NCBI GenBank assembly: GCA_950295325.1
Contig: OX485803.1
Span: 38,705,554 to 38,769,553, forward strand
Direction of reading: 5' to 3'
Source of the DNA: Polytrichum commune
Lineage: Eukaryota > Streptophyta > Polytrichopsida > Polytrichales > Polytrichaceae
DNA length: 64,000 nucleotides
This document shows, one piece after another, positions 3,210-61,138 of this stretch; position 1 is the first letter of the stretch, and the number at the start of each line of letters is the position of its first letter. A program made the position numbers and the translations under genes. The notes under the pieces were generated by a model that was not told the DNA's origin, did not search any database, and was given only the letters and a program-made list of their open reading frames with translations.

Positions 3210-3700
3210 TAAATACGCATGGCAAAACTAACTTCGGTGAGGTGTTTCGGAACACGGAGGAAGAATACTTTACTCCTGACGGACGGCCGCCTGCCTGCCT
3301 GCTGAGGAGGTTGAGGTTGAAACCCCAGCAGCATTGAGCGGGAGAGAAGTCTCCGTCTGCACGGCCCTGTGTGTGATGTAGTACTTGGAAAGCAGGCAGC
3401 TGCTCGCTAGTCTGTGGGGGTGAGGGTGAGAAGGTAAACCCTAACGCCACGAAAGGGGTGGCAGAATGTGGGTGGGGAGGTTGATGAGAGCAGCCCGAGT
3501 ATGTACATGGAGCACTGACATGTATTATAATTGGAGTACGCTCATCTGCTCACTCTGTTGCAGGATGGACGATTCGCGTCAGCCAACATCAACACCACGA
3601 TTCAGAAGCCAAGCCAAGCCAAGCCAAGCCTGGCCTGGCCTGCCCTCGCCATTTCTGTCTCCCTATGTGTGCTGCATCGTGAATGAGTAACTTGGGTGTG
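3210..3700. other. GC-rich island, no gene assigned
   Basis: Locally GC-rich DNA in an AT-rich setting, with short direct repeats (CAAGC units at about 3609-3630, CTGGC just after). ORFs occur on both strands (minus 3450-3136, plus 3466-3690), but none resembles a known protein and the first is largely a shadow of the adjoining MITE. It could be a decayed gene 5' end or a transposon fragment. Confidence 0.3.
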
Positions 3701-5899: not shown

Positions 5900-7215
5900 A
5901 CATGCAGCGCGCCCCCTAGTAAAGCGATTCACAAATGTCGACCTCTTCAGCGGCACCTGCAGCACATTATATTGTTCAGCCTACCGTTGATTTTGTTTGC
6001 CCACATCATTTGCAATATGTGTTGCACGCCGTAAAGCCAAACGGCCTCCCAGCCATCATCGAATTCCCTGCAAAGTGGACGTTCTCGACGATTACGATGC
6101 ACTCGATAATCTTCACATATCTCCAACATCTCTTGTTCAGATTCTTCTGTCCGTCTATATTATAAAAACATCTGCTACCCAACAACCACAAAAATAAGCA
6201 TCTATGGTCACACAATCTACACACTCTTGCAAGTTGCAGTTATTCAAAACAAAAAGAAACTACTCACATGGAATCAAACCCCCAAGCGACTTTTCATTTA
6301 GAATAGTTGAACATTAAACAATCGCATGTGGGAAGGCAATGTATCATTGGGGGTGAAGGCCATGGATTCGTGGCACTCAAGTATTTTCATAGCTAAAGTG
6401 CTCTTCATACCCCTTCATCTCATCAAAGACAATTCCAATTTTATTACAAGCAACTTAAGCAATGAGATGGTCCCATGTTTCTTGCAAAATAATAATGCAT
6501 GTATGTTGAAAAATTCTAGTAAAATCTAAGCTAGCACACTAGGTTGTTGACTTTATAGTTCTGCTAACTCTTCATCCTTACCCTTTCATATTGACTACTT
6601 CTAGAGCTTTCCTTGGCTTCTCATCCTCTTTGTAATTGTCATGCCCAAGCTTTGCTCCAATTCTTCATTGTTTTTTTCCTTTCTTATGAGACCTTTCTTC
6701 TTCTTCTTCTTCTTCTTTGTTTCTCATTTTCAAGATCTACAGAGAAATTTGTTACTTTGAGATTATGTTCTCTTCTTTGCAAAAAAAAAATGCCAAATTA
6801 GATACCTACTTGTAATGGGGCTCATGCACCTCTTTGAGCTTACAACGCCCCCCCCCCCCCCCCAAACACACACACACACCCACCATAGTCTGCCACACAA
6901 CACATGAGAGAGAGGAGATCAAAATGACCCCTCCCCCCAACCCAACAAGGGTCAAGGGAATGTTTTTTCGTATTTCCCTAAGGGCTACCTTGAATGGATG
7001 AAATATGGATTTTTATAAATGAAATATGCCTCACTTGTTGGAATAGAGATTACTCTCATGAGATAAAGTTTATTTATATAAGGCAAAGATTGTAAGGTCT
7101 TCCTAAGGTCTAGACAATAATTTGGCCTTTGTTGGAAATCTTATAAAATATTATCTCAACCAACTTTGATTTTTCTCTCGAGATATTTGTACACGTGTGC
7201 CCCCCCCCCTCTCCC
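5900..7215. other. Intergenic tract, no gene seen
   Basis: Non-coding sequence containing CTT simple repeats (about 6694-6715), a C16 tract (6848-6863) followed by CA repeats, and a second C-run near 7200. A 33-bp stretch at 6358-6390 matches the terminal repeat of the 246-bp element at 57858-58103 and is listed separately. Confidence 0.5.
6358..6390 (+). repeat. Solo terminal-repeat relic of the 246-bp TIR element
   Basis: This stretch shares most positions with the left end of the element at 57858, including an uninterrupted GGATTCGTGGCACTCAAGTA. The sequence diverges after about 33 bp and no matching opposite end was found nearby. It is either a truncated copy or the end of a different member of the same family. 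Confidence 0.55.
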
Positions 7216-7639
7216 CGCTGTGGATGCACCTTTCACAAAAACCAAGAATCAAGTGTGTTCGCAAGATACTCTAAAAAAAACCCCTCGATACAAGTTTTTT
7301 TTAATTTAACAATACACGTACAATTTCAAAGATAAAAATACAAGTGACATTGTGTATACAAAAAAAGGTCACATTTATATATGGCCATTATGTAAATATA
7401 CTTGTGAATAACAATCAACCACTATCATTTGTATAATGCAAAACCCTAGCATTCATCAATAAAGTCATTGAAGACTTTTTCATCCCCCCCCCCCATGACA
7501 CTCATAAGCATCTAAGTTTGCACTATATGTCTTAGCAGATAAGGCAATTATTGTTTCCGAGTCTACCGTCAAATGATTAGTATGATCATACGTCCGCTTA
7601 TTTCTTGGTTCCCTTTGATACCAACATATGCCAATCTGC

Positions 7640-8353
7640 CTCGGGGGGTGCACTGTGCTAAACATGTACGAGTATACGTGAGTGCACAGGAGGGGTATTG
7701 ATTTGGACCTTGCCGTATTACGTATACATATGGTATACATGTTATAATTTATAGTTACGTACATATATGGAAGGCCTTTAAAAAATATACAATAATTGTA
7801 CTTGTATGGTACTGTTACTATACTACATATCATAAGTTTTCATATTGGATGCGGAGGAAGTTTTGTAATCGTTGGGTGGAGTATAGGGATCCAATTGACT
7901 TGATGGACCGTCCATCAAACGTGGAGATTGGTTTATGTTGGTATCAAAAAGGGGCTAACAACAAGTGGACATGTGATCTTATTGATCATTTGATGGTAGA
8001 CTTAGAGACAATAATTGCATTGGCTACAATGACATATATTGGTGAATCAAATGTTTATGAGTTACATCCAGGACATGAAAAAGTTTTCAACGACTTTGCT
8101 GATGAAAGCTAGGATATTTTGTTATACATATTATAGGGGTTGATTATTGTTCAAAAGTATATTTGTATACTTATGTTAATGACTATATATGAATGGATGT
8201 TTTTTTGTGTATACATATTGTCACTTGTATATTTATTGTTGCAATTGTGTGTGTATTACTTCATTTCACAAAAAATAACTTGTATATAGGGGGTTTTTTA
8301 GAGTATGCAGTGAACGCACGTGATTCTAGGTTTTAATGAAAGATGCACCCGAG
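7640..8353 (+). mobile_element. hAT-like element, short form, nested inside another copy
   Basis: A 714-bp element with ends CTCGGGGGGTGCAC and GATGCACCCGAG. It is flanked by 8-bp duplications CAATCTGC (7632-7639) and CAATTTGC (8354-8361) that differ by one transition. Eight-base duplications are typical of the hAT superfamily. The target is the interior of an older, oppositely oriented copy, so the order of insertion is certain. It carries an intact 87-codon ORF. The element is too short to encode a transposase and must be non-autonomous. Confidence 0.88.
7849..8112 (+). CDS. 87-codon ORF of the hAT-like short element
   Basis: Open frame inside the nested element, starting ATGCGGAGGAAG and ending TAG. 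The product (RWVEYRDPIDLMDRPSN near the start, GLCWYQKG in the middle, ending FNDFADES) is not a family I recognise. The same ORF occurs at 57690-57427 and, with an altered start, at 12664-12404. Longer copies show that it is the C-terminal part of a larger protein preceded by WFVGRVYKM, so the short elements keep only a fragment. The differences between this copy and the one at 57690-57427 are almost all amino-acid-changing. That argues against a conserved protein function, so translation is doubtful. Confidence 0.4.
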   Translation: MRRKFCNRWVEYRDPIDLMDRPSNVEIGLCWYQKGANNKWTCDLIDHLMVDLETIIALATMTYIGESNVYELHPGHEKVFNDFADES

Positions 8354-8954
8354 CAATTTGCATGTTTGATGGGTGGTCCACCAAGTCAATTGGACCCCTA
8401 CACTACACCCAACAAATACCAAAATTTCCATACGCAACCTATAAACCCTCCCAACAAACCAAATCTTAATTGGAGCTCACTTTCTTGCTCTACCTCATCT
8501 CCCTTTAAATTTGAGATTCACGTGTATTTAAAAAAATCACATCACATTTATAACAAAATTTAATATAGTATCATGGTTTGTAGTGGTAAGGAGTTTTTTT
8601 TCATATGTAAATTGGCAGCCTTAATCTAGGTCAATCAATCTTAAATAAAGTTGGATTTCCTTTCAATTGACTAACAAATGTACTTTTGATAATCAGGTAC
8701 CCCTACCTCTACATAAGCCACGATAAACTTCACATTATAAAAAATTAATTAAAAAAACTTATGTTTTAAATTCTAGTGGCACTACCATACAAGTACAAAT
8801 GTTGTACATGTTTTAAAGGTCTTCCATACATGTACATAGCTACAAGTTTTAATTTGGGTAGCATATGTATACATAGTACAACAAAGTTCAAATTAAAAAC
8901 CCTTTTGTGCACTCACATATAGTCATATGTGTTTAGGATAATTCACCCCCCAAG

Positions 8955-9945
8955 CATTTAGGTTCTAGGTTTTTCAAACTGCAGGCTCTTGGAGTTATAC
9001 TCTTCAGACTTATGGGTTATCAAGAAGTTCAAGAAAAGAGGACCACCTAAAAGTACAAGATTTCTAAGACTTGGTATATTGGAAGGGTTTATAGAATGAG
9101 TAATTTTTTTGGTAATAACTATGTAGAATATAGGGAACCTATTGACATAGTGGCCCATTCTATGCATATGGAAAGAGGATTATGTTGATATCAAAAGCCA
9201 AATGGGTTGCAATGGACTTATAATTTAATTAATCAAATGATGGTGTCTTTAGATATTGATATCGCCTTAGCTTCAATGATGTTTGTTTTAAGGTTAGAAT
9301 ATTATAAGTTACTCCCCTAAGGGTTGGACTCTTTATATCACACACAAATTAACATGAGTGTAGGAAGGGGTAATATTTGAAGCATTAGTGTACATAGTCT
9401 ATATAAGGGAGAGGTGTTATTTTTCCTTGGTGTGTACATTTAAAAAGGCTATTAAGAATCTCAAACTAAAGGTGGATGTACAAAGGGGCCCCTAAGGTTC
9501 AAAGGAGAATTGACAATATATGTGCTAGTTTCATCCAATTTACCTTAGTTCATCCAAATGAAGTGTGTTTTAAGGTCATATCAATATGAGTTGTATTCTA
9601 TGGATGAAATAAATGTTCACTGACTTTCTCGGTGGAAAGTAAAAGTGGATTATATATGTAGTAAAGGCCCATTTATTTCATGATTGTGTATGTAGTGTAT
9701 TCATTTTCTAGCCTACTCTTAGTATAATACTCTTTTTCTCTATAAATATTATGTATACAAGGGTCACCCACACACGTCATTTAGGTTCCAATGAAGAGTC
9801 CAACCCCCAGGATTACTCCTATGAATCATGGATTCTATGAATGAAAAATTGTTCGATGACTTCTCATTGGAAATTGAGATTGAATTGTACATGTAATAAA
9901 GGCCTATTTCCTACATGATTTATTATTTGTTGTAGCCCATGCAAA
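8955..9945 (+). pseudogene. Ancient copy of the hAT-like element's protein
   Basis: Translation from 9091 gives a diverged homologue of the 87-codon ORF: NNYVEYREPIDIV, then ERGLC, a stop where the family has W (TGA for TGG), then YQKPNG and WTYNLINQMM. The upstream sequence (about 9030-9090) reads KKRGPPKS, then WYIGRVYRM, which parallels KKHGRPKK and WFVGRVYKM in the long copy. Two further degenerate C-terminal tails occur at about 9595-9700 and 9825-9940. The element ends are no longer recognisable. Divergence is much greater than among the short copies, so this family has been active over a long period. Confidence 0.65.
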
Positions 9946-10201
9946 GTTTTCTAACTAAAAGTTGTCCACATTGGCCCCCAACTACCTACCCACCTTTCTA
10001 CCTCAACCACCAAACTAAAAGGCTTGAGTGTCTTGAGTGATATTATAGTGCACCTGATCTTAAGGAATTTGGCATATGCATGTGTTGTTATGTATGTAGG
10101 ATCTCTATACAATACATGGTTATGCCCACTTTGAATAAAAACATGTAGCTTGAATGTCTTGCTTACCGCAAGTGCATGAGGGTGTGTTGAAGATGCCATT
10201 A

Positions 10202-10587
10202 AGGTGGGGGTGCCAATTTCCGTTCAAATTTCAGATGTGCCTAGTTGGGATCCTGAAACTATTTTTTTAAAAATTTTGAGCGCTCCGCAAAGCTGGTGCA
10301 AGAGCAACTATGAAAAAACCAAAATTTTCCAACATGTTTATGATTTCCTACAAATTTTTAAAGGAAACCTTGTAGAGTGACCAACACTTGCACATAGGGT
10401 ACGTGGTATATCCACAGGGTGGATTTCTAAAACCGACCGCTGGTAGCCAATGAAATGCTGGCAGCGCTGTGAACGGTAAAAGCACCTTGATAGGTGCTTT
10501 TGTAAACCCAGGTAAAAGCACCTAGATAGGTGCTTCTGACCATAGGGGTCGACTTTAGGACCCGCACGGAAATTGGCACCCCTACCT
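10202..10587. mobile_element. TA-flanked MITE, copy 2 (inverted)
   Basis: A 386-bp element starting AGGTGGGGGTGCCAATTTCC and ending with a near-perfect inverse, flanked by TA at 10200-10201 and 10588-10589. It aligns end to end with the element at 2819-3209 in the opposite orientation, including the paired AAGCACCT/AGGTGCTT palindromes (about 10479-10534). No coding capacity. The ORF that overlaps it (minus 10651-10427) is incidental. Confidence 0.8.
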
Positions 10588-12160
10588 TACACCTATTTGT
10601 TGGTCGTTTCCTATGTTTGACACATTGATGATGTATGAGCACATTGTACATTAATTGCTCCTAGGGCACACTTCCATGTGCCGACCGTTCCAACAAAAAA
10701 TAAGACTTCGTTGACATCGGCTTGGAAGTTTTTGTCGGTCGTTTCAAGGATCTTGATTGTCGAGCACCTTCATGTGGAGTAGGGAGGTCAACATATGAGA
10801 GTGTAGATTTATCTTATTGTCAACAATGCAAATTGAAAGATGGTCATTTCTTACATTACCCATTTGGATGCTGCTTCATTTAATGGAATTTGCCGACTTT
10901 GTCAGCACATGAAAGGTGCCCTTAATCTTCCGTATAAGAGGGTCTTTGTACTTTGTTGAGCACGCAAATTCATTCACCCTCCATCACCAACTCTCCATCA
11001 TAATCAGTTGGTCATCCAAGTGGTGAGCACTTCCAACAACTCCCATGGTTTTTTCTGCCTACAGAATTAACAATTTATCCAAAATCTTTGGTTCAGGCGT
11101 AGTCATGTCCCATATTCAACTTGAGTAGGTGAATGTCATGCTATAGATGTTGCCACAACTCGCCATCCATTCTCCTCCCACGAGTTATGTAGTCTATGCT
11201 TAGCTCTTAAGGCACACATGTTAAAGAGTGATTTGCTCTAGCCACTCTCGCGCCGCCAAAAGGGAAGGGGGGGGGGGGTTCACTCAGTGTAGCCCGTGTG
11301 TAATCACATGTGTGTACAAAAGAGCATTTAATTAGATTTTGGCTTAATATGATCACTTAAAGAAGATCTTAAAGTTAATCCCCAACTGTCCAAGATGCCC
11401 AATCTTGACCTCTCCATGCACAAAAGATGTATTTGAGTTACAAATTTGAATTTAATTCATTCTTCAAGAGAAATTCCTATATTAATCTGATACATTACTG
11501 CTATCGAATAGTTGGGTTGAAATATACAAGGGTGCCCTTGGATGCAATCATATATTAGTATTTTGAACACCAATGTCACATATAAGTAAACTCTATTTCT
11601 TCCTTGACATAAAATTATGTGGTAAAGAAAGTATTGAACCCTTAGATTTTAAAATAAATTGATTTTAAGACTTATTGAGATTCATAGAGATTGTGTATAT
11701 AGGTTGTACATCGAGCCCTTGGTCCTTTGAGCGTTAACCACCCATAGCTTTTGCATGTGAACTTTCTTCTTGCATTTTAGACTGACAATTTGCTTGAAAC
11801 GTAATAATTACTAACCCAATGAGACAATTCCGTATTCGATCTAGCTGCCCAAATTGTTTGTGGAGCCCACACCTTTCTAGGCCTATGGAAACAAATATGA
11901 GTGCATAGGAGGTGGTCTTATTGGGGTATTGATGTACAAATATACTTAGCATGTACATAGTGTAAGAGAAAAATATACATGTATATGGGAGGGCTTACAA
12001 AACCTTCTCAGAAACGTAATAATATGGTAGGGTTTTAGACATTTATCTCAAAGACTACAACATACGGTAAACTTGAACTAAAAGGGTTGTAATGGAGAAT
12101 TTTAAATGGAAAATTATGGATGATTATTGGTGGATGTTTAGTGTTGGGACACGCAAACAT
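10588..12160. other. Intergenic tract, no gene seen
   Basis: AT-rich sequence without a recognisable gene. A G-tract followed by TTCACTC at about 11267-11285 resembles a terminus of the CTCGGGGGG elements, but no partner end was found. Confidence 0.5.
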
Positions 12161-12873
12161 CTCGGGGGGTGCACCTTTCATTAAAACCTAGAATCACGTG
12201 TGTTCAGTGCATACTCTAAAAACCCCCTATATACAAGTTATTTTTTGTGAAATGAAGTAATACGCATACAATTGCAACAATAAATATACAAGTGACAATT
12301 TGTATACACAAAAAAACATCCATTCATATATAGTCATTAACATAAGTATACAAATATACTTTTGAACAATAATCAACCCCTATAATATGTATAACAAAAT
12401 ATCCTAGCTTTCATCAGCAAAGTCGTTGAAAACTTTTTCATGTCCCGGATGTAACTCATAAACATTTGATTCACCAATATATGTCATTGTAGCCAATGCA
12501 ATTATTGTCTCTAAGTCTACCATCAAATGATCAGTAAGATCACATGTCCACTTGTTGTTAGCCCCTTTTTGATACCAACATAAACCAATCTCCACGTTTG
12601 ATGGACGGTCCATCAAGTCAATTGGATCCCTATACTCCACCCAACGATTACCAAACGATTTCATCCAATATGAAAACTTATGATATGTAGTATAGTAACA
12701 GTACCATACAAGTACAATTATTGTATAGTTTTTAAAGGCCTTCCATATATGTACATAACTATAAATTATAACATGTATACCATATGTATACGTAATACGG
12801 CAAGGTCCAAATCAATACCCCTCCTGTGCACTCACGTATACTCATACATGTTTAGTACAGTGCACCCCCCGAG
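12161..12873 (-). mobile_element. hAT-like element, short form, copy 2
   Basis: A 713-bp element with ends CTCGGGGGGTGCACC and GTGCACCCCCCGAG. Flanking 8-mers GCAAACAT (12153-12160) and ACAAATAT (12874-12881) agree at six of eight positions, both differences being transitions, consistent with an aged target duplication. It is in the reverse orientation to the copy at 7640 and very similar to it. The 87-codon ORF is present at 12664-12404, but its first codons differ (MKSFGNRW instead of MRRKFGNRW). Confidence 0.85.
12404..12664 (-). CDS. ORF of the hAT-like short element (variant start)
   Basis: An 86-codon version of the conserved ORF, ending FNDFADES like its relatives. The first codons have been replaced by an indel or substitution cluster, so the start may be fortuitous. 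I do not recognise the product. It lies entirely inside the transposable element. Confidence 0.35.
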   Translation of the reverse strand: MKSFGNRWVEYRDPIDLMDRPSNVEIGLCWYQKGANNKWTCDLTDHLMVDLETIIALATMTYIGESNVYELHPGHEKVFNDFADES

Positions 12874-13435
12874 ACAAATATGGACTAGGCATCCCAAAGA
12901 TAGGTAGGGGGGGATCCGACCTGGGATCCTAGATGCTAACAGAAGAGTGTTGGTAACAAATAAACCTATGATTTTAAGTGATCAATTGATGGGAGATTTA
13001 CACATTGTCATTGTGTTGGCTTACATGACATACATCTTGGACACGGATACCTACAATGTCATCTTTAATGGATTTAGAAACGAAATTAGATTTCATAGAT
13101 TATGCACATGAAGAAGGGGTCACTTTCCCCTCTTACCCAGTTCTCATATACTTATCCTATGACCTTCATTTTCACTGATTTTTCTACATGTGTACATATC
13201 TTAGGTTGATTTCTCCCACTTAAATATGTCTATACTTGTTCTTTCCACTGCAAAGAATGTTGAATAGAGAGGGGTTTTAGCAGGCCCTTTGAACCCACAT
13301 GTTTCCAAAAAACAAAGAGCGATTTATAAAATGGAAACCCCTCGAATTGTGAAGTTGGAAGTTCCCATAATAGAATCACAAGAATCAAGATAAACAAATG
13401 TTATGTTTACATTTTCAAAATCCACACACCAGCGC
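12874..13435. other. Intergenic tract, no gene seen
   Basis: AT-rich spacer between two hAT-like insertions. Around 12940-13075 there are weak traces (GATCAATTGATGGGAGATTTACA) that resemble the DHLMVDLE-coding segment of the element protein, so this may be another heavily decayed copy. Confidence 0.35.
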
Positions 13436-13724
13436 CTCGGGGGGTTCGCTGGCGAAAAATCGTAGAACAACGTGTGCGATAAAAAATAGGGTCTAATATA
13501 TTCATTGTAGATAAATTTTGTAAAAAACTTAAATATAATATAGGTGGTTTTTAAATAGTGAAAAATGATCACATGTAAAATACCATCACATGTAAAATAC
13601 CACCATACCTTTATTTTGAGAAATACCATACCTTATAATCTTTTCTACAAGGTAAATAGCCCCCCAGTTAATAGGTCCCGAACGCACGTGTATGCAAAAT
13701 ATAAGAGGGAGTGAACCCCCCGAG
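13436..13724. mobile_element. Small hAT-like MITE with CTCGGGGGG ends
   Basis: A 289-bp element beginning CTCGGGGGGTTCGC and ending GTGAACCCCCCGAG. It is flanked by ACCAGCGC (13428-13435) and ACAAGCAC (13725-13732), which match at six of eight positions. The interior is AT-rich, unrelated to the longer elements and non-coding. It shares only termini and target-duplication length with them, as expected for a MITE mobilised by the same transposase. Confidence 0.75.
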
Positions 13725-13845
13725 ACAAGCACTCATGATAACCTTACATAAATAAGAAATCCAAATTTTGATTCAATGTTTATTGATGTTTCATCGTAGA
13801 GTTGCTAATGCAACATAACTCTCAAGATGTAAGTCCAATCCATAG

Positions 13846-14040
13846 CATGGGGGGTGCACTCTACATAACAATGTATGAGTATATGTGACTACACAAGAAG
13901 GGTATTAATTTGAACTTTGCCGTACCATGTATACATATGCTACACAAATTATAGCTCACAGTTATGTACATGTATGAAGCACCCCTTAGAATATATACAA
14001 CACCTGTTCTTGTATGGTAGTGTCATTAGATTTTACGAAA
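13846..14040 (+). mobile_element. hAT-like element, truncated end fragment
   Basis: Begins CATGGGGGGTGCAC and follows the left-end sequence of the copy at 7640 (GTGCAC-flanked TATGAGTATA, GGGTATTAATTTG, TACATGTATG) before similarity stops near 14040. Only one end is present, so it is a truncated relic. Confidence 0.65.
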
Positions 14041-14246
14041 TGAGTGTTTAATATCAAATGAAACCAAGATGAATTATTTCCTTATTTCCTTATCTCATTC
14101 ATGCATGTATGGAAGAGGCAATATTAGGGTTTTGGAAGGGGTCATTAAGCTAAGAACACAGTCACTTCTTGCTTAGGGTTGCAAGAGGAACGGGCCATGC
14201 TTCTTTGCTTCATAGGGGATGGTTGATGCGGGTGGTTGATGTAGGC

Positions 14247-15517
14247 CCAGGGGATGCACCTTTCATCAGAAACCAAGAACCATGTGTGTTCGCAACATAC
14301 TCTAAAAAGACCCCTATATACAAGTTTTTTTTTTTGGGTGAAAGCAAGCAATACATGTACAATTTCAATGATAAAAATACAAGCAACAATTTGTATACAT
14401 GAAACAACACATTCATATATAGTCATTAATATAAATATACAAATAAAATTTTAAATAATAATGAACCCCTATCATATGTATAATGTAAAACCCAAGCATT
14501 CATTAATAAAGTCATTGAAGACTTTTTCATGCCCCAGATATAACTCATAAGCAACCTATAATATATGTCATAGAGGCTAATGCGATTGTTTCTAAATCTA
14601 TCATCAAATGATTTGTAAGATCATAAGTCCACTTATTGTTGGTTCCCCTTTGAGATGCCAACATAAACCCAATCTCCATGTTTGATGGATGGTCCATCAA
14701 GTCAATCGGATTCATATACTCCACCCAACAATTATCAATTTTTCTATGCATCTTATAAACCCTCCCAACAAACCAAACCTAAACTGGAGCTAATTTTTTT
14801 GGTCTACCATGTTTTTTGACAATTCTAGCTTCATGTTTGTTCAGAAAACACATTGCATAATCACAACCAAGATTTAACATAGTATCATCATTTATGGCGT
14901 TAAAGAGTTTAGGCTTCATATATAATATGCCAACCTTAATCCAAGTCAATTGATCTTTAGATATAGTTGGATTGCCATTAAATTGACTAATAATTGTACT
15001 TTTAAATGATTCTAGACTCCCCTACCTATACATAAGCCACAATGTACTCTACATTAGAGTGAGAGGCCATTTCAACAATTTTATGTTCATCAATTAAAAC
15101 ATCCAAGACATGTCGAAGCTCACTCTGCAACTTCATATCTTCATTGAAAATTATTTTCAACATGCGACTGCATCGATCAATTCCATCTTTATGACAACAT
15201 CCTTGCACATGTTTGAATTGTCTTCTCCAACACTGCAATATTCCTTGTCATCGCCTATGCACTAGAATCATCAATCAATAAGTGACCATAATCACACTCC
15301 TCATCCTCCTTCATACTTCCAAATAAACGAGCCTTGATAAGTGCCCTACCATGCAAGTGCAAAATGTTGTATATTTCTAGAGGTTCTCCATACATGTACA
15401 TAACTATGAGTTATGAGTTGTGTAGCATATGTATATTTAGCACCAAAAGTAAAAATTAAGACCTCTTTGTGCACTCATGCATACTCATACGTGTTATGAA
15501 AGGTGCACCCCCCGGGG
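14247..15517 (-). mobile_element. hAT-like element, long form (1.27 kb)
   Basis: Ends CCAGGGGATGCACC and GGTGCACCCCCCGGGG are flanked by ATGTAGGC (14239-14246) and ATGCAGGT (15518-15525), matching at six of eight positions with only transitions. Its terminal regions match the 714-bp copies, but about 560 bp of extra interior are retained. The short elements therefore look like internal-deletion derivatives of this form. It carries the longest coding remnant of the family on the minus strand. It is still too short for a complete hAT transposase. Confidence 0.82.
14530..15345 (-). pseudogene. Unrecognised protein remnant with AT-hook-like motif, in hAT-like element
   Basis: Reading the minus strand from about 15345 gives an interrupted coding region. 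In order it shows an acidic stretch (KEDEECDYGHLLIDD), a helical-looking segment (RMLKIIFNEDMK, then LRHVLDVLIDEHKIVEMASH), a segment containing QLTWIKVGILYMKPKLFNA, the basic motif KKHGRPKKL, and then WFVGRVYKM leading into the segment kept as the 87-codon ORF in short copies. At least two frame changes and several stops interrupt it. KKHGRPKK fits the AT-hook core (GRP flanked by basic residues), which would suggest minor-groove DNA binding. That is inference from one motif. I recognise neither a transposase catalytic domain nor a host family. It is homologous to the remnants at 8361-8720 and 9030-9325. Confidence 0.55.
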
Positions 15518-15879
15518 ATGCAGGTAGTGATTATAGGCATTAGGTGACTTAGAAGTCAGGTCTTGACACAAAGGCTAACATAAAAATTCATTAAAATTGC
15601 GAAGGTGCTCAAAGCTTCTCCTATCTTGATTCATTTCGTGTGTTTTACATCGCCCCTACCTCCTTTTGGGCGCTCTCATCACATTAGTGGATGTGTGTAT
15701 TTGATTATGGAAGCAACAATAAGTGTTTATATATTTATTTATTTTAAAAAAATCATCAATTAATATCTTGGATTTGAATAGAGAATAGAATGCTTGTCTT
15801 GTGTCCAAATTATGTTGTCCTTATGTAAGCAAAACATTAAGTTAACAAAACTAACTAACTAAACTAAACTAAACTTCAA
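15518..15879. other. Intergenic tract, no gene seen
   Basis: Non-coding spacer. Short AACTAACTAAACTAAAC repetition at about 15848-15874 abuts the next element relic. Confidence 0.5.
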
Positions 15880-16356
15880 TTAAGCTTTAGTTTGTTGGGA
15901 GGGTTTATAAGATGTATAAGTTTTTAGGTAATCATTGGATGGAGTATAGGGTCCAATTGACTTCATGAACCGTTCATCAAACATGGAGATTGGCTTATGT
16001 TGGTTCAAAAAGGACACCAACAAGTGGACTTATGATCTTACTAATCATTTGATGAGAAACTTCTTACGATCTCACTAATCTCTTGAAATAATAATTGCAT
16101 TAGCTTCTATGACATATATCGTAAACTTAATGCTAATGAGTTACATCCAGGGGATGAAAATCCTTCAACAAATCTATGATGAAAATGCTTAAGGTCTTGT
16201 ATACATTACATCTGATAGGGGTTGATTGTTATTCAAAAGTACATTTGTATGCTTATGTTAATGACTATATACATAAGCATCTGTATATAGGGGCTTTTTA
16301 GAATATCTTGCCAACGCATGTTATTCTTGGTTTTCAATGAAAGGTGCACCCTCGGG
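15880..16356 (+). mobile_element. hAT-like element, truncated right part
   Basis: From TTTGTTGGGAGGGTTTATAA onward this follows the family's C-terminal coding part: weak WMEYR, AYVGSK and KWTYDLTNHLM frames with small indels, then an extra ~35-bp repeat of the ACTAATC stretch near 16041-16085. It ends GGTGCACCCTCGGG near 16356. The left end and the upstream coding part are missing. Frameshifts leave no usable ORF. Confidence 0.65.
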
Positions 16357-18146
16357 ATGATGAATAGAAGATGGAGGACCAAAACATACCCCCACACACA
16401 CACACACAAAACAAAACAAAAAACAAAATGTATGTGAAGGCGGGCAAGTGATGAGAAGGGAGTTGAGCAACTTTGAAGTCAACCTGAGGACATCTGAGGA
16501 GCCAGATCAAAAGCATTGGATCGTCATTATGAATGATGGATGTAGGCCCCCAAGGACACTTGAAATGCACGGGATCTTTGGGCTTTCAAAGCTAAGGCAA
16601 TTGTTGTGAGTGATATGTATATATATAGAAATATGTGTGTGTAAGTTACAATGTATTTGTGGCTCCCAATACCGACACCACTTTTGGCTTGCCCACATTC
16701 CACGCCCAAAGCGAAAGAGGTGGTCAACCGTGACTTGCCTTATTCATTGTCTTGTCCTTGCCCCCCGAGTCCAATGAATAGGCTAGACGCTCAAAGGTAA
16801 GGTATGTGGGTATTACTTGGTTTGTTTTTCATGTTCTACAACTTCTACTAGTTGGATTTACACAAAAAATTCATGTTGCAGTAGTAAATCTATGTTGAAA
16901 CATATGTTAGAATCGCTTTGAAATTCGGACTTCCCTTGATTTAGTTATGCTTATTGGAAGTGCATGTTTGTTGATAGTTTAACTACACGCATAGGTCTTT
17001 CCTGTTGTGTTCATTATTGAGTAGTTATTAACATTTGAAGACATAGTCTAATCTTTTGTAAGCATGTGGGTTTATGATGTTTGTTGTTTGATCCTCACTG
17101 AACCACGTACCGATCAAATATAGGTGTCCGGGTAAGGAAATGAGTCACTTAAGACCCATGAACCTTGGACGTGTGTTGCTTGCGTCCTTTTCTCTCTACA
17201 CCCACTTCTTATAAGGTATGGAACATGCAATCGGTGCGAGATGGTATAAAACTCATATGGTATAAAATGATCAAGAAAGAATCCCCCCCCCCCCCACTTG
17301 TATTCTTCCTCTAGAAACATGGAGTGCTTCATCCATAACGCCCACATCCCGAAAGGGAAGGAAGTAACCTTACCTTATTGCTTGGTAACACATGACCAAT
17401 GTACGGTAGAACGGGCTCCCCTTCAGGCTGGTGTAAAAACTACAAAACACCAATGTTCTTCTTCTTTTCTTTCTCTAGTATATCATGGAAGAAGAAGTAA
17501 ACGATGCCCGTACAAGATGGGTGAGAATTTTCAATGATGAGGTCCGGAGTGTAAGCCATGCCTCAATCACTTGTCAAACATAGAGACAAACCAATATTTG
17601 CACACCTTTTGATGACCTTTGGGTTTCCAATAATAAGGGGGCCACCGAAATGCGCGGCCAAACCCCACAACATGGCATTATGAAACCCTTTACATATATA
17701 TATATATAGATATATATCTTGACTCCCAAGAGTCTTTTGGCACCATTATTTATCATCGTTTTGGAGTTGTGAATGCAAAGGGACATCACAAAAAGTGTGT
17801 ATGATGAAGGCTTCTCGGGCGTATATGGGGGATCGATGATATCCATATTTGCCCTTTCATTGTTCAGATTCTCACAAATAGGACATGTGTGTGGATTTTT
17901 TTAATCCAACAGGTGCACCAAGTGGCAGCGTGTGATTGGCAGCTTGCAGATGCACATAGGGTATGCGATGCGGGCATTATTTCGTTTGTTTTCCTTGTTC
18001 TCCATCTTCTATTGATCACATTTTACGTTTGTGTTGCACTAGCATGTCGATGATGGACCATCGTTAACGTCCAAATAGAATAGGGGAGCCGGACCTCCCT
18101 TTATTTAGTGTTGATTACCGGAAATGCACATTTGTTGATTCCTTAA
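16357..18146. repeat. Two diverged copies of an old dispersed repeat; otherwise no gene
   Basis: The stretch about 16800-17130 and the stretch about 17950-18660 are direct diverged copies of one sequence, sharing blocks such as TTGTGTTCA[C/T]TAT, CATTTGAAGA and TTGATCCTCACT[T/G]. The second copy is interrupted by the MITE at 18147-18489. A further relative lies at about 3770-3920. Simple-sequence features include CA and AAAAC repeats at 16392-16430, a C-tract at about 17283-17296 and a TA repeat at about 17696-17720. No protein is recognised. Confidence 0.5.
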
Positions 18147-18489
18147 CTCGGGGGGGGCAGTGTGTTAAAAAGTTAAGGATATAGGTGCAAACAACCACTA
18201 TTTTATAGGGGGATATTACTTTCAATTCTCTTCTTTTTTTCACATGCTATCATTATGTAATTTTCTACTTTGGGTTGATAGAAAAATGGCTTGCATTACT
18301 TATAATTCCAAATTACCTATTATTCCATACCCTATAGTACTTTAAAGATGTCCAGTGCCATTTTTGATACCCTATATTACTCTTAAGTCCATTTATAATT
18401 TTTTTGCCCCCATGTTTTTAAAATACCCTATCATTTGTTCGCATGTATATTGCTACTCCAACCAATGACTAAACCCCCCCCCCCCCAAG
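18147..18489. mobile_element. hAT-like MITE with perfect 8-bp target duplication
   Basis: A 343-bp insertion starting CTCGGGGGGGGCAGTG and ending in a C-tract plus AAG. It is flanked by identical TTCCTTAA octamers at 18139-18146 and 18490-18497. It interrupts a repeat whose uninterrupted relative at about 16990 gives the empty-site context, so the insertion boundaries are secure. The interior is AT-rich and non-coding. The termini place it with the other CTCGGGGGG elements in the window. Confidence 0.85.
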
Positions 18490-18497
18490 TTCCTTAA

Positions 18498-20990
18498 CAA
18501 AATGCATAGGTCATTTCAATTGTGTTCACTATCGAGTGTGGAGTAGTCAATAGCATTTGAAGATGTAATCCAATATCTTTTAAACATGTGCCTTTGTGGT
18601 GTTTGTTTCTTGATCCTCACTTGACCACACACCAATCTAATATATGTGTCTGATTTTAAAAAGTAACCAAATAACACCTGCATACCTTAGCCATATGGCA
18701 ACAATTGATATCAACTACACTTTACATCTGGTTTAGTGGGACCCGTCTTATTCATTATTGATCCAAGTAAATGATCTTGTAAACATTAGGTGGCAGTCAT
18801 AGAAGGTCACATGAGATTGTGAATCATAAAAGATTATCATTTTCAAATCTCATAATCAAATGTTAATATAAGGCAAAGTGAAGATTCTTATTTTCTTTAA
18901 ACGATCGTAGGCCCTCCAACCATTTGTGTAAACTACACTAATTATCCCAATTAGTGTGTCTGGCACTAATTCTTGTAGCACCCACTAGTTTACCAAATCT
19001 CAAAATTAGTGAGGGTTTTCACTAAGTGATACTCAATTCATGAATACATGTTCATTTAACATACATTTCAAGAAAATTAGTGTGTGCTCTAAGGTGTTTG
19101 TAGAATGCATTTTTTTTTGGTAAGCTCAAAGAGGCTTCTTCTTTTCAGTCAACGCCACTCACTCTTGAGGCATCCCTTAACACTGAGATACTGAAAAAAG
19201 CTTGCATTGAGAGTTACCAAAACTTTGACACTTTGGGCTCCCAAAACCCTAGATCTTTCTAGTAGCACTAATTTCATAGCATATAAAAAAAACATAAATA
19301 AATAAAAAGTAACACCTTCACTCCTTTCCAACACACACTATTAGCCCATCCTCGCTAAATGGGATGATAATCGTAGGTAACTTGAAATAGTGTCTTTGTT
19401 TTGAGCACACACTCCAATCTCATTGTAACAAGAGTCTTTTTGGTGTATGTTGTTAACTACAAGCCTTGTCATACACCACTCAAACACAAGTGTCCAATTA
19501 AGGAGAGTAACCACAAAAGGCCCACATACCTTAACGCAAATGCAAGAGAGATTGAAGTACTCTGTCTAGTTACAACAGTGCACTTCTTTTTGGATCCCAG
19601 GAAGTGCACTCGAAGCAACCACATAGGCCCTTCTTTAGACTTGTGCCACAAAGCCCATGACAAATTTTGTTAGGTTCCGAAGCTAGCTGACAATGAGTCC
19701 CTGGCAATGAATCTACATGCAATCATACTTGTAAGTGTGAGCGTTAAGGTTGCAACACACTTTTAAGGTATATTAATCGCACCTATTCCTGACATTTTGC
19801 CACATTTGGGTGTTTAGAGTATGCGGTTTATGTGGATTCCATAGCCTTTCAAATCGGATTTGGAAGTCCACCTACTCAGAACATTTGAATCTATCTCAGT
19901 TTCTTACATAACTTTGAAGCCACTATTTCAAAACCCAATGTGATGAATTAGTAGAGACGTATGTTTATGTTACCCATCCTGGTCACACCCAACCTTTTGC
20001 GTGGGATAAAGTGCTTCTTGACTAGCTTATTACGAAACCTCGTGATTGGGAGAATGCCAGCTTCGGCAAGGTTTCAAGCTTTGCGGGGGCTTGATTTACG
20101 CTTTGGCTGAGAAAATTGGCTTCCATGCTCATGAAGATGTAAGCTATAGCAAAAAAATAATTATAATCACAGCCTGTAAATGAAATGTTTTGCAACCATA
20201 TTACACTGTTGCACCTCAAGGACGATTGATGATACCTAGTTGCTCCGCGATAGGGCGAATTTGCACAAGGTACCCCTGGCATGTGAAGGTTGTGTGAGAC
20301 AAAACCCTCTTACTTGCAGCAGTACAAGGAACATGATTCCAGCCAACTCGTAAATGTCACAGGTGAATTCAATTCCAGCTCAGGTACCCTCCACAAGCAG
20401 GGGGTACACATCATTCATGTTCATCATCACCGCAAAAGCTTTTCATGTGACATGGCATGATGCCCACCATCAGAAGGACAAACACTGTATGTGGTAACAT
20501 GGCAGGACCACTATGCATTTATTGAAATGTGTTTGCGAGTGTTCAGTAAAGGTCCAAACCAGTACATCTGCAGCACCATAAGGCCGAGGATATGGCCACT
20601 GCAACCTGGTACACAGGTTTGTTTTACGAGCATTTATGCTACTTTTATACAGGTTGATGGAACATACTCACAAACGGAAGTCAGTCAAGATGCATTCATT
20701 ATCAGTGACAAAAGTGCTTGGAAACCTTACTCCATCTTCCTGAGGCGCCACATGTGTAACTTTGCAGCTGATCCATGTACGAAACTATCACAAGGATTGC
20801 ATTGACTTGAAAGTTTGCTCCCACATTAGCAATTTACACAGTACTCAAACGATGCAACACACTTTCCTTTCATACTCTTTAAATGGTTTGCGCTGGAGTT
20901 TGCAGACATGACTGCGAGCACCTAACAATAGAGATAGGACCAATAAGGGAGGGAGCTCCAAGGCGAGGGGAAGAAAATCTGTAAAATGCT
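18498..20990. other. Tract downstream of the kinase gene, no gene seen
   Basis: No protein gene supported. The stretch about 19400-19560 is a diverged relative of 29615-29780 (shared ACTCCAATCTC, GTCTTTTTGGT, GTGTCCAATTAA). The plus-strand ORF 20491-20805 has no recognisable similarity and may lie opposite the distal 3' part of the kinase transcript. A minus-strand AATAAA occurs at 20522-20517 and is one possible polyadenylation signal for that gene. Confidence 0.4.
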
Positions 20991-21419: not shown

Positions 21420-24400
21420 TCACCCTTCATAACGGCGAGGGGAATTGATAGCTTGATTCTCATATGCCCGTGTGCGCCGTACAAAATTCCGGTTGGCAGG
21501 ACTTTCGTCAACAGAATTATCACTATCATCAGCCGACTGACCCTTTGACAATCTCTGCAACAACCGTTCCTGGTTTTGAGCTTCCGTGCGGTGTGACCGC
21601 TGATGATTACTAGATCCAGCTTTACGATCCTGCACAAAGACATCCATTCTTCTTATAAGTAACCTGTAAACACAAACACACTATACAACATGAATACACC
21701 ACGAAATGCAATGAAACAGAACGGGTGGATATCAGGAAAGTGAACGGGTACTATTCCCAATGTCAGTTGATTTTAGAGTTTACAATAAGTCAATGGGAAG
21801 AAATATGCAGGCAGGCTGTGACCATTTTCCTCCACTTTTGAAACCATTTTTCTATTGCTAGATTAGGTGGCTTAAACCATGTGACTGGATTTACTATGGG
21901 AAGAAGCAATTCTTGGAAAAAGGCTTTAAGTCAAAGGAGAAAGGGAGGATGAGAAAATGTTACATACATCACGGAAGGGAAACTCTTCTGCTTCGAGCAT
22001 GTGTACAACATGGCCCATTTTCGGTCTTTTTAGCGCATCTGGGTCAACACACCGCAGAGCCACAAGGAGAGCCCTCTTCAGGGCTCGAGAAGTTGGCTTC
22101 ACTTCCATACTTGGATCCGCCACTTCTTCCGAGCGTCTGTTGCCCACCATTTGCTTCAACCAATCTACTAAATTAATCTGCAATGCCACACAACCCCTTG
22201 TCATTTGAAACATATCTTGAGCCAAACCTTCAACATTCCCCTTGGCAATGATCAAAGCAATCACAAATTCTATATGCAACTGTCTTAGTTTATATCATCC
22301 AACAAATCCATGCAGCAAGCCACCTCACCAGATATGCTTAATTTTGTGAATGAGTAAATATCTACAATACTTTTTCCATCATATTTCACTAATCTGTTCA
22401 ATTCCTGGGTGGCATTTGGGCCTCGACCAATGTCTGCATCCATTACAAGGAGATCAGAAGCTTCAAAGCTAGGAAAAGAATAGTGTAATTATGGAGGAAG
22501 GGAATCACCTCTCCTGTAGCACGGTTGTAGTCTACAGGGTCCCGTCCTGTGATAATTTCCATGAGAAGTACCCCAAAACTATACACATCACTTCGCTCAT
22601 TGAGGAGGCCAGTGTTGGCATACTCAGGTGCTACATACCTGTACCCAAAACATCATTTCTCATAAATAAAAGGTCAACAAATGCAGAAATTGAAAAGGAT
22701 ATGATGGCACATATTGCAAACAGACTAATCAGTTTAGCAGATTATGAACAAATGCATGCTTAGCAGTACTTAGCAAACACTTACCCAAACGTTCCCATGA
22801 CACGGGTGGTAACATGACTCTTGCCCGAGCCAAGAAGTTTTGCAAGGCCAAAATCGGAGACCTTCGCATTCCATTGTGCATCCACAAGGATGTTGCTTGA
22901 CTTGATATCACGGTGTACAACCTTTGGTTCCAAAGCCTCATGCAAATATGCCAATCTGAAGAGGGTGGCAAACGACATACTGTAAGCATTCAGACAGTCA
23001 TAGATTGATGTCCATGAATGAGTTCATACTGTTGAATTTTAGACCACTGCTCCAATATGTGAATAGATTTCATGAATTTCCTAGAAATTCTTCACTCTGA
23101 AATGTTCTAAATGATCAGATTACACTATGAGGATGAGATACCTTGCAATCTGGCGGAGTCAATCTATTCACATAAAATTGACAAATCCAGATCCTCCAAT
23201 ATAAAACGTATAACTTCTCAATACTCAAAAACCTACCCTTTGGCAGTGCCCATAACAATCCGCATCCGTGCTTCCCATGGGAGTGAGCTTGATTGTGACA
23301 ACGGCCCATGTAGCCATTGCTCTAAATTCCCATTGTCCACATATTCATACACAAGCATTCTGCAAAATAATCATGTAAGGAGGTTCAATTCCCATACAAA
23401 TTGTATGGCAGCCTATTTAGAATCTCCAGAAACCTAGTGTAAAAGAATACTATCTTCAAATAAAATGTCCCAAACATTCTAGAACACCTGCCAATGCATG
23501 AGCGATCCATTCCTCTTCCCATTCATACAGATATCATTGTCAAGTTTCTGAAACATGTTAGTCCGGTACGTTGTTGTGATAGTGAGACCAATTAAGATAG
23601 CATATCACTGAAAATAAGGTTATTATAGAATTATGGTACTCATGCTTAACAGTTCACCTTCTTAATAAGACAGACATCCTCACCCAGATTCTTAGGAGGT
23701 AGAAAGACCCAAAGTGACATCTTCGGTATATCACTAAACCACAATATCTGTAGTGAAGAGAAAAAAGACCAACCCTTTGCTCCTACTGTGTGCTCTCATA
23801 GATCAGATCCACAGCTCTGACAGAAAATTGGAAAGGCTGGTGGTGTACCTGTGGGCGCCTTCTGCACAGTAGCCCAGCAACCGCACTAAATTTTTGTGCC
23901 GAACACGGCCAATTGCTTCTACTTCCACTCTAAACTCCTTTTCTGCTTGACCCCTGCAAGAAATCATCACAACAGATATCAGTCTTTGGAGGCCTACAGA
24001 TTAAGAAACGACATACAAATGCATGCAGAACTGCAAAACCACATACATATGCAGATCCACAGCATTAGTACCTGATTGTCCTCCATATTCAAAGTGCACA
24101 GTGAGGCGATTCTCATTTACAACAACTTCATGCAATTTTCAAGGACATTACACCACTAGAACAAGGGTAATACTGATGTAAAAGTAAATCTCTACAAGGT
24201 TCAGAGAAACCTAAGTTAAACACCACAGAAGAGTTCAAACAACCAAGCAAACCAAACAGGTTCCGCAACCTACTTCCATATTGTAAAAGTCTTCGTGTGA
24301 GAGCAGGCTAGCCATTGCTTACTGGAAAAGAGAAAACTTGTCACAATAAGTGGATGTCAGTGTGCAAGGGCATGGATATGGGACCTGTTATTGAGAAGAT

Positions 24401-44590: not shown

Positions 44591-44593
44591 TTA

Positions 44594-57183: not shown

Positions 57184-57426
57184 CTCGGGGGGTGCACCTT
57201 TCATTAAAACCTAGAATCACGTGCGTTCACTGCAAACTCTAAAAACCCCCTATATACAAGTTATTTTTTGTGAAATGAAGTAATACACATACAATTGCAA
57301 CAATACATATACAAGTGATAATATGTATACACAAAAAAACATCCATTCATATATAGTCATTAACATAAGTATACAAATATACTTTTGAACAATAATCAAC
57401 CCCTATAATATGTATAACAAAATATC

Positions 57427-57690
57427 CTAGCTTTCATCAGCAAAGTCGTTGAAAACTTTTTCATCTCCCGGATGTAACTCATAAACATTTGATTCACCAA
57501 TATATGTCATTGTAGCCAATACAATTATTGTCTCTAAGTCTACCATCAAATGATCAGTAAGATCATATGTCCACTCGTTGTTAGCCCCTTTTTGATACCA
57601 ACATAAACCAATCTCCACGTTTGATGGACGGTCCATCAAGTCAATTGGATCCCTATACTCCACCCAACGATTACCAAACTTCCTCCGCAT
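57427..57690 (-). CDS. 87-codon ORF of the hAT-like short element
   Basis: Intact ORF beginning MRRKFGNRWVEYRDPIDLM and ending FNDFADES, the same product as at 7849-8112 with six residue changes. Compared codon by codon, the two copies differ at six amino-acid-changing sites and about one silent site. This is the C-terminal remnant of the larger protein seen in the long element. It is a transposon-borne fragment of unknown function and may not be expressed. Confidence 0.4.
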   Translation of the reverse strand: MRRKFGNRWVEYRDPIDLMDRPSNVEIGLCWYQKGANNEWTYDLTDHLMVDLETIIVLATMTYIGESNVYELHPGDEKVFNDFADES

Positions 57691-57857
57691 CCAATATGAA
57701 AACTTATGATATGTAGTATAGTAACAATACCATACAAGTACAATTATTGTATACTTTTTAAAGGCCTTCCATATATGTACATACTTATAAATTATAATAT
57801 GTATACCATATGTATACGTAATATGGCAAGGTCCAAATCAATACCCCTCCTGTGCAC

Positions 57858-58103
57858 GGCCGGGGATTCGTGGCACTCAAGTAAAATCATCCGTGCGGAT
57901 GAAAAAAACACATGAATCATCTAAATGGCTATTTTTGGGCAAATTGATTCCGAAAATAGAGTCAAAGGCCCCGAATTAGTCTAGTGACGTCACATTCGAA
58001 TGAATCGGCCCTCAACCCCATAGGGGGGCTTTTTTTATTGGAGCCACTTCATCCACGATATCTTGGATGGATGATTTTACTTGAGTGCCACGAATCCCCA
58101 GCC
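57858..58103. mobile_element. 246-bp TIR element nested in the hAT-like copy
   Basis: Interrupts the hAT-like element with identical flanking CCTGTGCAC nonamers (57849-57857 and 58104-58112). Terminal inverted repeats of about 35 bp start GGCCGGGGATTCG and GGGCTGGGGATTCG, then run perfectly through GTGGCACTCAAGTAAAATCA. The interior is non-coding. A 9-bp duplication fits a Mutator-like MITE; 8 bp (hAT) is possible if one base is coincidental. The short copies at 7640 and 12161 serve as empty sites. Confidence 0.9.
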
Positions 58104-58162
58104 CCTGTGCACTCACGTATACTCGTACATGTTTAGTACAGTGCACCCCCTAAGATTTGAGT

Positions 58163-60633: not shown

Positions 60634-60638
<5 letters not shown>
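58163..60638. other. AT-rich tract, no gene seen
   Basis: No gene recognised. A purine-rich GGGGAGGGGGGAGGGGGG stretch sits at about 59936-59953, and a short GA repeat at about 60409-60420. Sequence ending GCACCCCCCC near 59165 resembles a CTCGGGGGG-type terminus, but no partner was found. Confidence 0.45.

Positions 60639-60702
<64 letters not shown>
60639..60702. repeat. (TC)n microsatellite
   Basis: About 32 uninterrupted TC units. The serine/leucine-repeat ORF running through it is a by-product. Confidence 0.97.
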
Positions 60703-60705
<3 letters not shown>

Positions 60706-61126: not shown

Positions 61127-61138
61127 TGTTGGAATGCA

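What the first reader, a model, noticed from the sequence alone, without database searches (positions are those of the whole stretch)
7216..18489. A family of CTCGGGGGG-ended elements with 8-bp duplications, in long, short and MITE forms
Several insertions share the terminal motif CTCGGGGGG(T/G) and 8-bp flanking duplications: TTCCTTAA perfect at 18147-18489, ATTTGAGT perfect at 57184, CAATCTGC/CAATTTGC at 7640, and three aged pairs at 12161, 13436 and 14247 that differ only by transitions. Forms of about 1.27 kb, 0.71 kb and 0.29-0.34 kb coexist. The duplication length points to hAT, but no hAT transposase is recognisable in the window, and the G-rich termini are unlike the hAT ends I know. 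This could be an undescribed lineage.
Basis: partly seen in the sequence, partly recalled or inferred. Interest (0 to 1): 0.72.

Follow-up and report, generated by a model that had tools for sequence, protein, structure and literature searches.

The report
Plant jumping-gene family with G-rich ends
This stretch of what looks like plant DNA holds a real set of small, disabled jumping genes that duplicated 8 bases of host DNA each time they inserted, sometimes into one another; the enzyme that moved them is missing, so their place among known transposons stays open and they are probably an ordinary kind with unusual ends.

Summary
Seven elements have recognisable ends and 8-bp flanking duplications (6 to 8 of 8 bases alike): 7640-8353, 9316-9811, 12161-12873, 13436-13724, 14246-15516, 18147-18489, 57184-58154. 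Two older elements act as hosts (about 7214-8954 and 13846-16359). Three insertions are nested in relatives; for two of them the joined flanks align with uninterrupted copies. Length 8 is specific: of 25 candidate end pairs, 5 match at 8 bp with at most 2 mismatches, 0.15 expected. The elements share a box, ACGTGYG, about 36 bases inside most ends. Several carry decayed pieces of one gene without a significant match in Pfam or PDB sequences. Pfam found no TIR-transposase domain in the window; no genome is held. They are best read as non-autonomous cut-and-paste DNA transposons. Duplication length and short inverted ends lean to hAT, but 0 of 16 assigned ends fit the hAT consensus, so membership is not claimed. 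A new superfamily is possible, not shown.

The parts
7214..8954 (-). E1o: older host element, left end eroded, right end CTTGGGGGG; carries decayed gene remnant; no recognisable duplication (2/8)
   Evidence: profile matches at 1e-11 (right end, itself in the profile) and 1e-4 (left end, not in it)
7640..8353 (+). E1: 714-bp element nested in E1o, duplication CAATCTGC/CAATTTGC (7/8); A end left, B end right
   Evidence: joined flanks align with E4 and E2
7837..8109 (+). E1 copy of the gene remnant (91 aa, followed by a stop)
8955..9315 (+). D: diverged copy of the gene remnant (43% protein identity to E1 over 76 residues, one stop), interrupted by E7
9316..9811 (+). E7: 496-bp element, ends CCTAAGGGTTGGACTC / CCTGGGGGTTGGACTC, duplication GTTACTCC/ATTACTCC (7/8); part of it is 77.7% identical to 9829-9920 in D
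9820..9930 (+). continuation of D after E7; in the same frame as the part before it once E7 and one duplication copy are dropped (an in-frame stop lies just past the junction)
12161..12873 (-). E2: 713-bp element, duplication GCAAACAT/ACAAATAT (6/8)
12407..12676 (-). E2 copy of the gene remnant
13436..13724 (.). E3: 289-bp MITE-like element, duplication ACCAGCGC/ACAAGCAC (6/8); box 7/7 at both ends
13846..16359 (+). E4o: older host element around E4; possible duplication ATCCATAG/ATGAATAG (6/8, right boundary uncertain)
14246..15516 (-). E4: 1271-bp element nested in E4o, duplication GATGTAGG/GATGCAGG (7/8); longest gene remnant
14560..15021 (-). E4 gene remnant (154 codons, one of them a stop)
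18147..18489 (.). E5: 343-bp MITE-like element, perfect duplication TTCCTTAA; a related repeat at 16931-17040 lacks it
57184..58154 (-). E6: 716-bp element (971 with a foreign insert and its duplication), perfect duplication ATTTGAGT
57430..57702 (-). E6 copy of the gene remnant

Best explanation
These are non-autonomous cut-and-paste DNA transposons, in several sizes and ages, moved in trans by the transposase of full-length relatives that do not lie in this window. Likely course: the transposase recognises the G-rich terminus (CTCGGGGGGTGCAC in the best-kept copies) together with the ACGTGYG box about 36 bases inside each end, pairs the ends, excises the element and inserts it at an 8-bp staggered cut, which host repair turns into the 8-bp duplication. 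Shown here: the ends, the duplications, the nesting, empty counterpart sites for three elements, the shared box. Inferred: protein binding to the box, mobilisation in trans, cut-and-paste rather than replicative movement, plant origin. Superfamily: a divergent hAT is the single most likely reading (about 50%, lowered from 55% on re-reading the MULE passages), not a membership claim; the confidence given is for the first sentence.
For: Duplication length 8 specifically; 7 elements with 6 to 8 of 8 bases alike. Nesting: E1 in E1o, E4 in E4o, E7 in D. E1's joined flanks align through the site with E4 and E2, which have one copy of the target. E5's joined flanks align with a related repeat at 16931-17040 without the element, and less well with one near 55.7 kb. 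D without E7 aligns with the E6 protein over residues 3-90 in one frame, 41% identity, E=1e-23 for that short subject. Box: 11 of 14 ends score at least 5/7 at start 36/37; shuffling bases 15-60 gave mean 0.43, largest 4 in 2000; in one set without near-identical copies 7 of 8 (the 4 ends of the two host elements left out). Among the 6 ends of E3, E5, E7, 3 score 7/7 and 5 at least 5/7 at starts 35-37; random window 60-mers reach these in 0.032% and 5.0%. E1, E2, E6 are 96.6-97.6% identical to each other, as after a fairly recent burst.
Against: No full-length copy or TIR transposase seen. A profile of the ends does not find E3 (E=0.49) or E7 (E=7.9) when left out, nor E5 (no hit up to E=10); with the first 14 bases removed it finds neither E3 nor E7. 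So these three rest on terminal motif, duplication length, box and pairwise end comparisons (best z: E7R-E2L 10.3, E3L-E2L 4.1, E5L-E2R 3.9; E5R none). The box was noticed on all ends together, so the test on E3, E5, E7 is not blind. E5's right end scores 2/7 at the expected place (6/7 at 44, after a long G run). D without E7 still has two stops in frame, one just past the junction. E4's insertion site has no empty counterpart in the window. For hAT: 0 of 16 ends fit.
Confidence: 0.87

Rival explanations
1. An atypical Mutator-like (MULE) family with short inverted ends that makes an 8-bp instead of the usual 9-bp duplication.
For: Passages of PMC9168764 give MULE duplications as 7-12 bp, describe a barley MULE with GGG...CCC ends, and count 10 of 278 of its bounded copies with 8 bp; passages of PMC2528002 say that 40% of the grapevine MULEs lack inverted ends. 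A separate element with a 9-bp duplication lies in this window.
Against: In one search, 5 of 25 end pairs match at 8 bp and 0 at 9 bp (up to 2 mismatches); grapevine MULE duplications, where found, were always 9 and 267 of 278 barley copies had 9. Typical MULEs have long inverted repeats.
Confidence: 0.12
2. A member of another superfamily with 8-bp duplications (P element, Novosib, Zisupton/KDZ), or of a superfamily not yet described; the unmatched gene remnant would then be part of its transposase or of an accessory protein.
For: Ends do not fit hAT. The gene remnant has no significant Pfam or PDB-sequence match. P element and Novosib are listed among plant MITE superfamilies (passages of PMC5454002 and PMC10004981); Zisupton makes 8-bp duplications (passages of PMC12730594).
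Against: No positive evidence. The remnant is short, decayed and from deleted copies, so a missing match says little. In the passages of PMC10741241 that I saw, which name seven TIR superfamilies of plants, hAT is the one described with 8 bp.
Confidence: 0.3
3. About the gene remnant only: it is not the transposon's own gene but a host gene fragment captured once (Pack-type element) and carried along.
For: No significant match to a transposase family (the strongest hints, ANAPC2 E=0.043 and Agenet E=0.13, are below the Pfam cut-offs). No pair of copies shows a significant excess of third-codon-position changes (8 diverged pairs, p 0.10-0.93), so selection on the gene is not demonstrated.
Against: Pieces occur in E1, E2, E4, E6, both host elements and D, with protein identities from 96% down to 30%, so it is old in the family. 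D is recognised at protein level (E=1e-15) but not by the DNA self-comparison at E 1e-8, which suggests a protein-coding past.
Confidence: 0.25

Closest known systems
hAT superfamily (Ac/Ds-type), plant non-autonomous members
   Same: 8-bp duplications, short inverted ends, subterminal motifs (PMC4763223, passages), internally deleted and MITE-size forms
   Different: Ends are mostly CTCGGGGG, none of 16 fits [T/C]A[A/G]NG or [T/C]AGNGNNG (consensus from passages of PMC6027215); no hAT transposase or hATC domain seen
Mutator-like elements (MULEs)
   Same: Plant DNA transposons; at least one family has GGG...CCC ends, and 8-bp duplications occur in a minority (passages of PMC9168764)
   Different: Duplications mostly 9 bp and typically long inverted repeats (passages of PMC9168764 and PMC2528002)
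Zisupton / KDZ
   Same: 8-bp duplications for Zisupton and for the Dileera family Zisupton-1_PGr (passages of PMC12730594)
   Different: Nothing else could be compared; Kyakuja makes 7-bp duplications and has CA..TG ends without inverted repeats
Plant MITEs filed as P element or Novosib
   Same: Both are listed among plant MITE superfamilies (passages of PMC5454002 and PMC10004981)
   Different: Their defining ends and duplications were not seen in any call; comparison not possible

Membership tests
Cut-and-paste (TIR) DNA transposon | Inverted terminal repeats | tested here: met
   Ends pair as CTCGGGGGGTGCAC-like inverted repeats, decayed in some copies
Cut-and-paste (TIR) DNA transposon | Target duplication of fixed length, with empty counterpart sites | tested here: met
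   8 bp; empty-site comparisons for E1 and E5 and E7; none made for the other four
Cut-and-paste (TIR) DNA transposon | DDE/D transposase in full-length members | tested here: inconclusive
   None found by Pfam in the window; no genome held
hAT | 8-bp target duplication | tested here: met
hAT | Short inverted repeats (5-27 bp; passages of PMC10741241) | tested here: met
   About 9-14 bp
hAT | Terminal consensus [T/C]A[A/G]NG (plants [T/C]AGNGNNG) | tested here: not met
   0 of 16 ends for either form (18 ends less the eroded left end of E1o and the uncertain right end of E4o). The plant consensus in PMC6027215 came from a search seeded with the older one, up to 4 mismatches, so exceptions may exist
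hAT | hAT transposase with C-terminal hATC domain | tested here: inconclusive
   No Pfam match in six frames, but the copies are deleted
MULE | Target duplication mostly 9 bp | tested here: not met
   0 of 25 end pairs match at 9 bp with up to 2 mismatches, 5 at 8 bp; a perfect 9-bp match by moving one boundary a base was seen for E5 only
MULE | MULE transposase domain | tested here: inconclusive
   None found; copies deleted
Zisupton/KDZ, P element, Novosib | Superfamily transposase and terminal sequence | not testable with these tools
   No transposase in the window; no repeat library or plant genome available

The most novel reading that the evidence does not exclude
The elements belong to a plant DNA-transposon superfamily not yet described, with G-rich ends, an ACGTGYG box about three and a half helical turns inside each end that the transposase needs, and a transposase whose C-terminal part is the unmatched protein remnant (...VWFVGRVYKM...WVEYRDPIDL...) seen in the copies here.
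Probability: 0.1. Interest if true: 0.7.

Novelty: new member of a known kind. Interest (0 to 1): 0.3.

Why it matters
If the ends and the gene remnant prove to belong to a transposase outside the known plant superfamilies, elements that are filed as hAT on duplication length alone would need re-examination. Otherwise the value is practical: a terminal motif, a box at a nearly fixed distance and an 8-bp duplication make a usable signature for annotating this repeat family in its host genome.

Tried and rejected
Chance motif matches: rejected. Long inverted repeats: the self-comparison at first suggested about 200-bp inverted repeats; they are pieces of different nested elements, and the two ends of one element are alike for about 9-14 bases.

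Identity of the gene remnant: Pfam, three pieces (ANAPC2 E=0.043, Agenet E=0.13, both below the cut-off); PDB sequences (best E 0.7, 0.88, 0.38); NCBIfam (best E 0.15). Two AlphaFold2 models had mean pLDDT 45 and 48, too poor for a fold search, so none was run. A scan of viral contigs: 2 stretches matched a pattern, none confirmed. A scan of prokaryote genomes: 30 stretches matched, 2 confirmed; in both the match lies in one long bacterial ORF (uncultured Clostridiales, Ruminococcus) resembling the remnant over 29 residues, which I take as chance. These scans find close relatives only, and neither collection is one of plant genomes.

Selection on the gene: third-position excess was seen by eye but is not significant in any of 8 diverged pairs (p 0.10 to 0.93); I dropped it as evidence.

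CTCGGGGGGTGCAC in viral contigs: 16 stretches, not examined further and given no weight. Text search for CTCGGGGGG: 48 papers, 20 listed, whose titles concern other subjects. Other literature searches: 420 papers, 25 listed; 104, 20; 99, 20; 8, 8; 25, 12; 114, 12. I saw listings, and for nine papers passages (PMC12730594, PMC6027215, PMC10741241, PMC6913007, PMC9168764, PMC2528002, PMC10004981, PMC5454002, PMC4763223). I recognised no such family in the listed titles; this does not show that none is published, as repeat libraries were not searchable.

The E4o duplication (6/8) is not counted because its right boundary is uncertain. An unpaired end-like match at 11273 (E=0.0012) was not resolved.
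Full report
What was checked. The motif is over-represented (17 matches with up to one mismatch, mean 4.6 in shuffles, 0 of 100 shuffles as high). The duplications are present at the reported places, with small corrections: a start at 14246 rather than 14247, an end at 58154 for the 57184 element, and one transversion besides a transition in the 13436 pair.

Is 8 the real length? Pairs of a start C[CTA][CT][AG]GGGG and its mirror within 3 kb were listed (25 pairs) and the flanks compared for lengths 4 to 12. Five pairs match at 8 bp with at most two mismatches (two perfect, one with one, two with two), where 0.15 is expected from random pairs of places in the window. No pair matches at 9, 10 or 11; with two mismatches there is one at 12, two at 7 and one at 6; at 5 one with one mismatch; at 4 two with one and six with two. 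The 7640 and 9316 elements are not among the 25 because one end of each does not fit the pattern; their duplications are 7 of 8. For the 18147 element a shift of one boundary by one base gives a 9-bp match; the pairing of its two ends favours 8.

Nesting. The 714-bp element E1 (7640-8353) sits inside an older element E1o (about 7214-8954). E1o's flanks joined with one duplication copy align through the site with E4 and E2, which have one copy of the target. The 1271-bp E4 (14246-15516) sits inside E4o (13846-16359); I have no uninterrupted counterpart of that site. With E7 and one duplication copy dropped, the two parts of D lie in one frame and align with the E6 protein over residues 3-90 (41% identity, E=1e-23 against that short subject); two in-frame stops remain, one of them just past the junction. 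E5 (18147-18489) lies in a repeat of which a related copy at 16931-17040 lacks the element. E6 (57184-58154) is itself interrupted by a foreign 246-bp element at 57858-58103 with a 9-bp duplication CCTGTGCAC; without it the sequence aligns with E2.

Shared anatomy. The larger elements have an A end (CTCGGGGGGTGCACTGTRCTAAACATG...) and a B end (CTCGGGGGGTGCACCTTTCATTAAAACC...), alike for about 14 bases. Most ends carry a box, ACGTGYG or close to it, starting about 36-37 bases in: 11 of 14 ends score at least 5 of 7 there, against a mean of 0.43 and a maximum of 4 in 2000 shuffles of bases 15-60 (the 4 ends of the two host elements were left out). E1, E2 and E6 are near-identical copies and not independent; counting only E2, E3, E5 and E7 (starts 36/37) it is 7 of 8. 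The box was noticed on all ends together, so what follows is not a blind test: among the 6 ends of E3, E5 and E7, 3 score 7/7 at starts 35-37, which 0.032% of random 60-mers of the window do, and 5 score at least 5/7 (random 5.0%); E5's right end scores 2/7 there and 6/7 at 44, after a long G run. Pairwise, E7's right end aligns with the B end of E2 at z=10.3, E3's ends with it at z=4.1 and 3.0, E5's left end with the A end at z=3.9; E5's right end shows nothing.

Results against one family. A profile of the ends still finds E4 and E4o when they are left out (E 2e-9 to 9e-6), but not E3 (E=0.49), E7 (E=7.9), or E5, which was in none of the profiles (no hit up to E=10); with the first 14 bases removed it finds neither E3 nor E7. 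So the small elements are tied to the larger ones by terminal motif, duplication length and box rather than by overall sequence. E7 has one further tie: part of it is 77.7% identical over 94 columns to the continuation of D at 9829-9920; as protein the match is weak (E=0.33).

The gene remnant. E1, E2, E4, E6, the two host elements and D carry pieces of the 3' part of one gene, read from the A end towards the B end where both ends are known; a further scrap lies at 12974-13084 (42% identity, E=3e-4). D is recognised at protein level (43% identity, E=1e-15) but not by the DNA self-comparison at E 1e-8. Nucleotide differences at codon positions 1, 2, 3 are 12,10,20 (E6-E4), 28,24,40 (E6-D), 24,25,33 (E4-D), 11,14,16 (E6-E1o), 6,3,6 (E6-E4o), 5,4,3 (E4-E4o), 12,9,16 (D-E4o), 18,18,20 (D-E1o), and 3,4,1; 3,3,1; 2,3,2 among E6, E2 and E1. 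None of the eight diverged pairs has a significant excess at third positions (p 0.10 to 0.93), so selection on the gene is not demonstrated. The remnant has no significant match in Pfam, NCBIfam or PDB sequences and gave no confident model.

What it is. Fixed-length duplications, inverted ends, nested insertions and empty counterparts make these cut-and-paste type DNA transposons. No copy holds a recognisable transposase, so they were presumably moved by an enzyme from elsewhere. Pfam scans of the whole window, six frames in pieces of about 6 kb with stops read as X (E up to 0.1, up to 0.01), gave protein kinase (4.5e-11), RNase H (0.0013), DUF3915 (0.0032 and 0.0065), Helitron_like_N (0.012), BPD_transp_1_N (0.062) and Atrophin-1 (0.089), but no hAT, MULE or other TIR transposase. 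By what it works like, hAT is nearest: 8-bp duplication, short inverted ends, subterminal motifs (for hAT ends see passages of PMC4763223; in the passages of PMC10741241 that I saw, hAT is the plant TIR superfamily described with 8 bp). By membership, one defining feature was tested and not met: 0 of 16 assigned ends fit [T/C]A[A/G]NG or [T/C]AGNGNNG (passages of PMC6027215). MULE is less likely because 9 bp is the usual length (267 of 278 barley copies, always in grapevine where found), but PMC9168764 allows 7-12 bp and many grapevine MULEs lack inverted ends (passages), so it is not excluded. Zisupton, P element and Novosib cannot be tested without the enzyme (passages of PMC12730594, PMC5454002, PMC10004981).

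Origin of the DNA. ORFs at 21926-22294 and 24357-25145 read like parts of a plant receptor-like kinase (recalled; those two ORFs alone gave no kinase match, while kinase matches appear among the frames of 18-40.5 kb). I treat the window as plant nuclear DNA, an inference. No species is claimed.

Verdict. The claim of an undescribed lineage stays open: it needs the genome and a repeat library. I score it as a new member of a known kind, of moderate interest.

Noticed in passing
57858-58103: A 246-bp element with inverted ends alike over about 35 bases (GGCCGGGGATTCGTGG... / GGCTGGGGATTCGTGG...) and a 9-bp duplication CCTGTGCAC, MULE-like by these two features, inserted in E6.
   Followed up: partly
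11273-11323 and 11850-12020: An unpaired end-like sequence (E=0.0012) after a long G run, with ACATGTGTG in it, and further on a decayed stretch that reads like an A end by eye (not significant); perhaps remains of another element.
   Followed up: partly
2817-3212 and 10199-10589: An inverted pair of repeats, 93% identical over 397 columns.
   Followed up: no
16798-17129, 18494-18673, 55591-55958, 44418-44593: Another dispersed repeat family, copies 68-75% identical; E5 is inserted in one copy.
   Followed up: partly
26565-27804: Tandem array with a period of about 158 bases, copies 75-83% alike, with related single pieces near 44.7, 46.6 and 52.9 kb.
   Followed up: no
21926-22294 and 24357-25145: Minus-strand ORFs that read like parts of a plant receptor-like kinase by recall; Pkinase E=4.5e-11 among the frames of 18-40.5 kb, exact place not given; no kinase match for these two ORFs alone.
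   Followed up: partly
612-688: tRNA-Asp (GTC) gene, minus strand (Rfam tRNA at 616-687).
   Followed up: no
60620-61422: Overlapping long ORFs on both strands next to a serine-leucine coding simple repeat; probably not genes.
   Followed up: no
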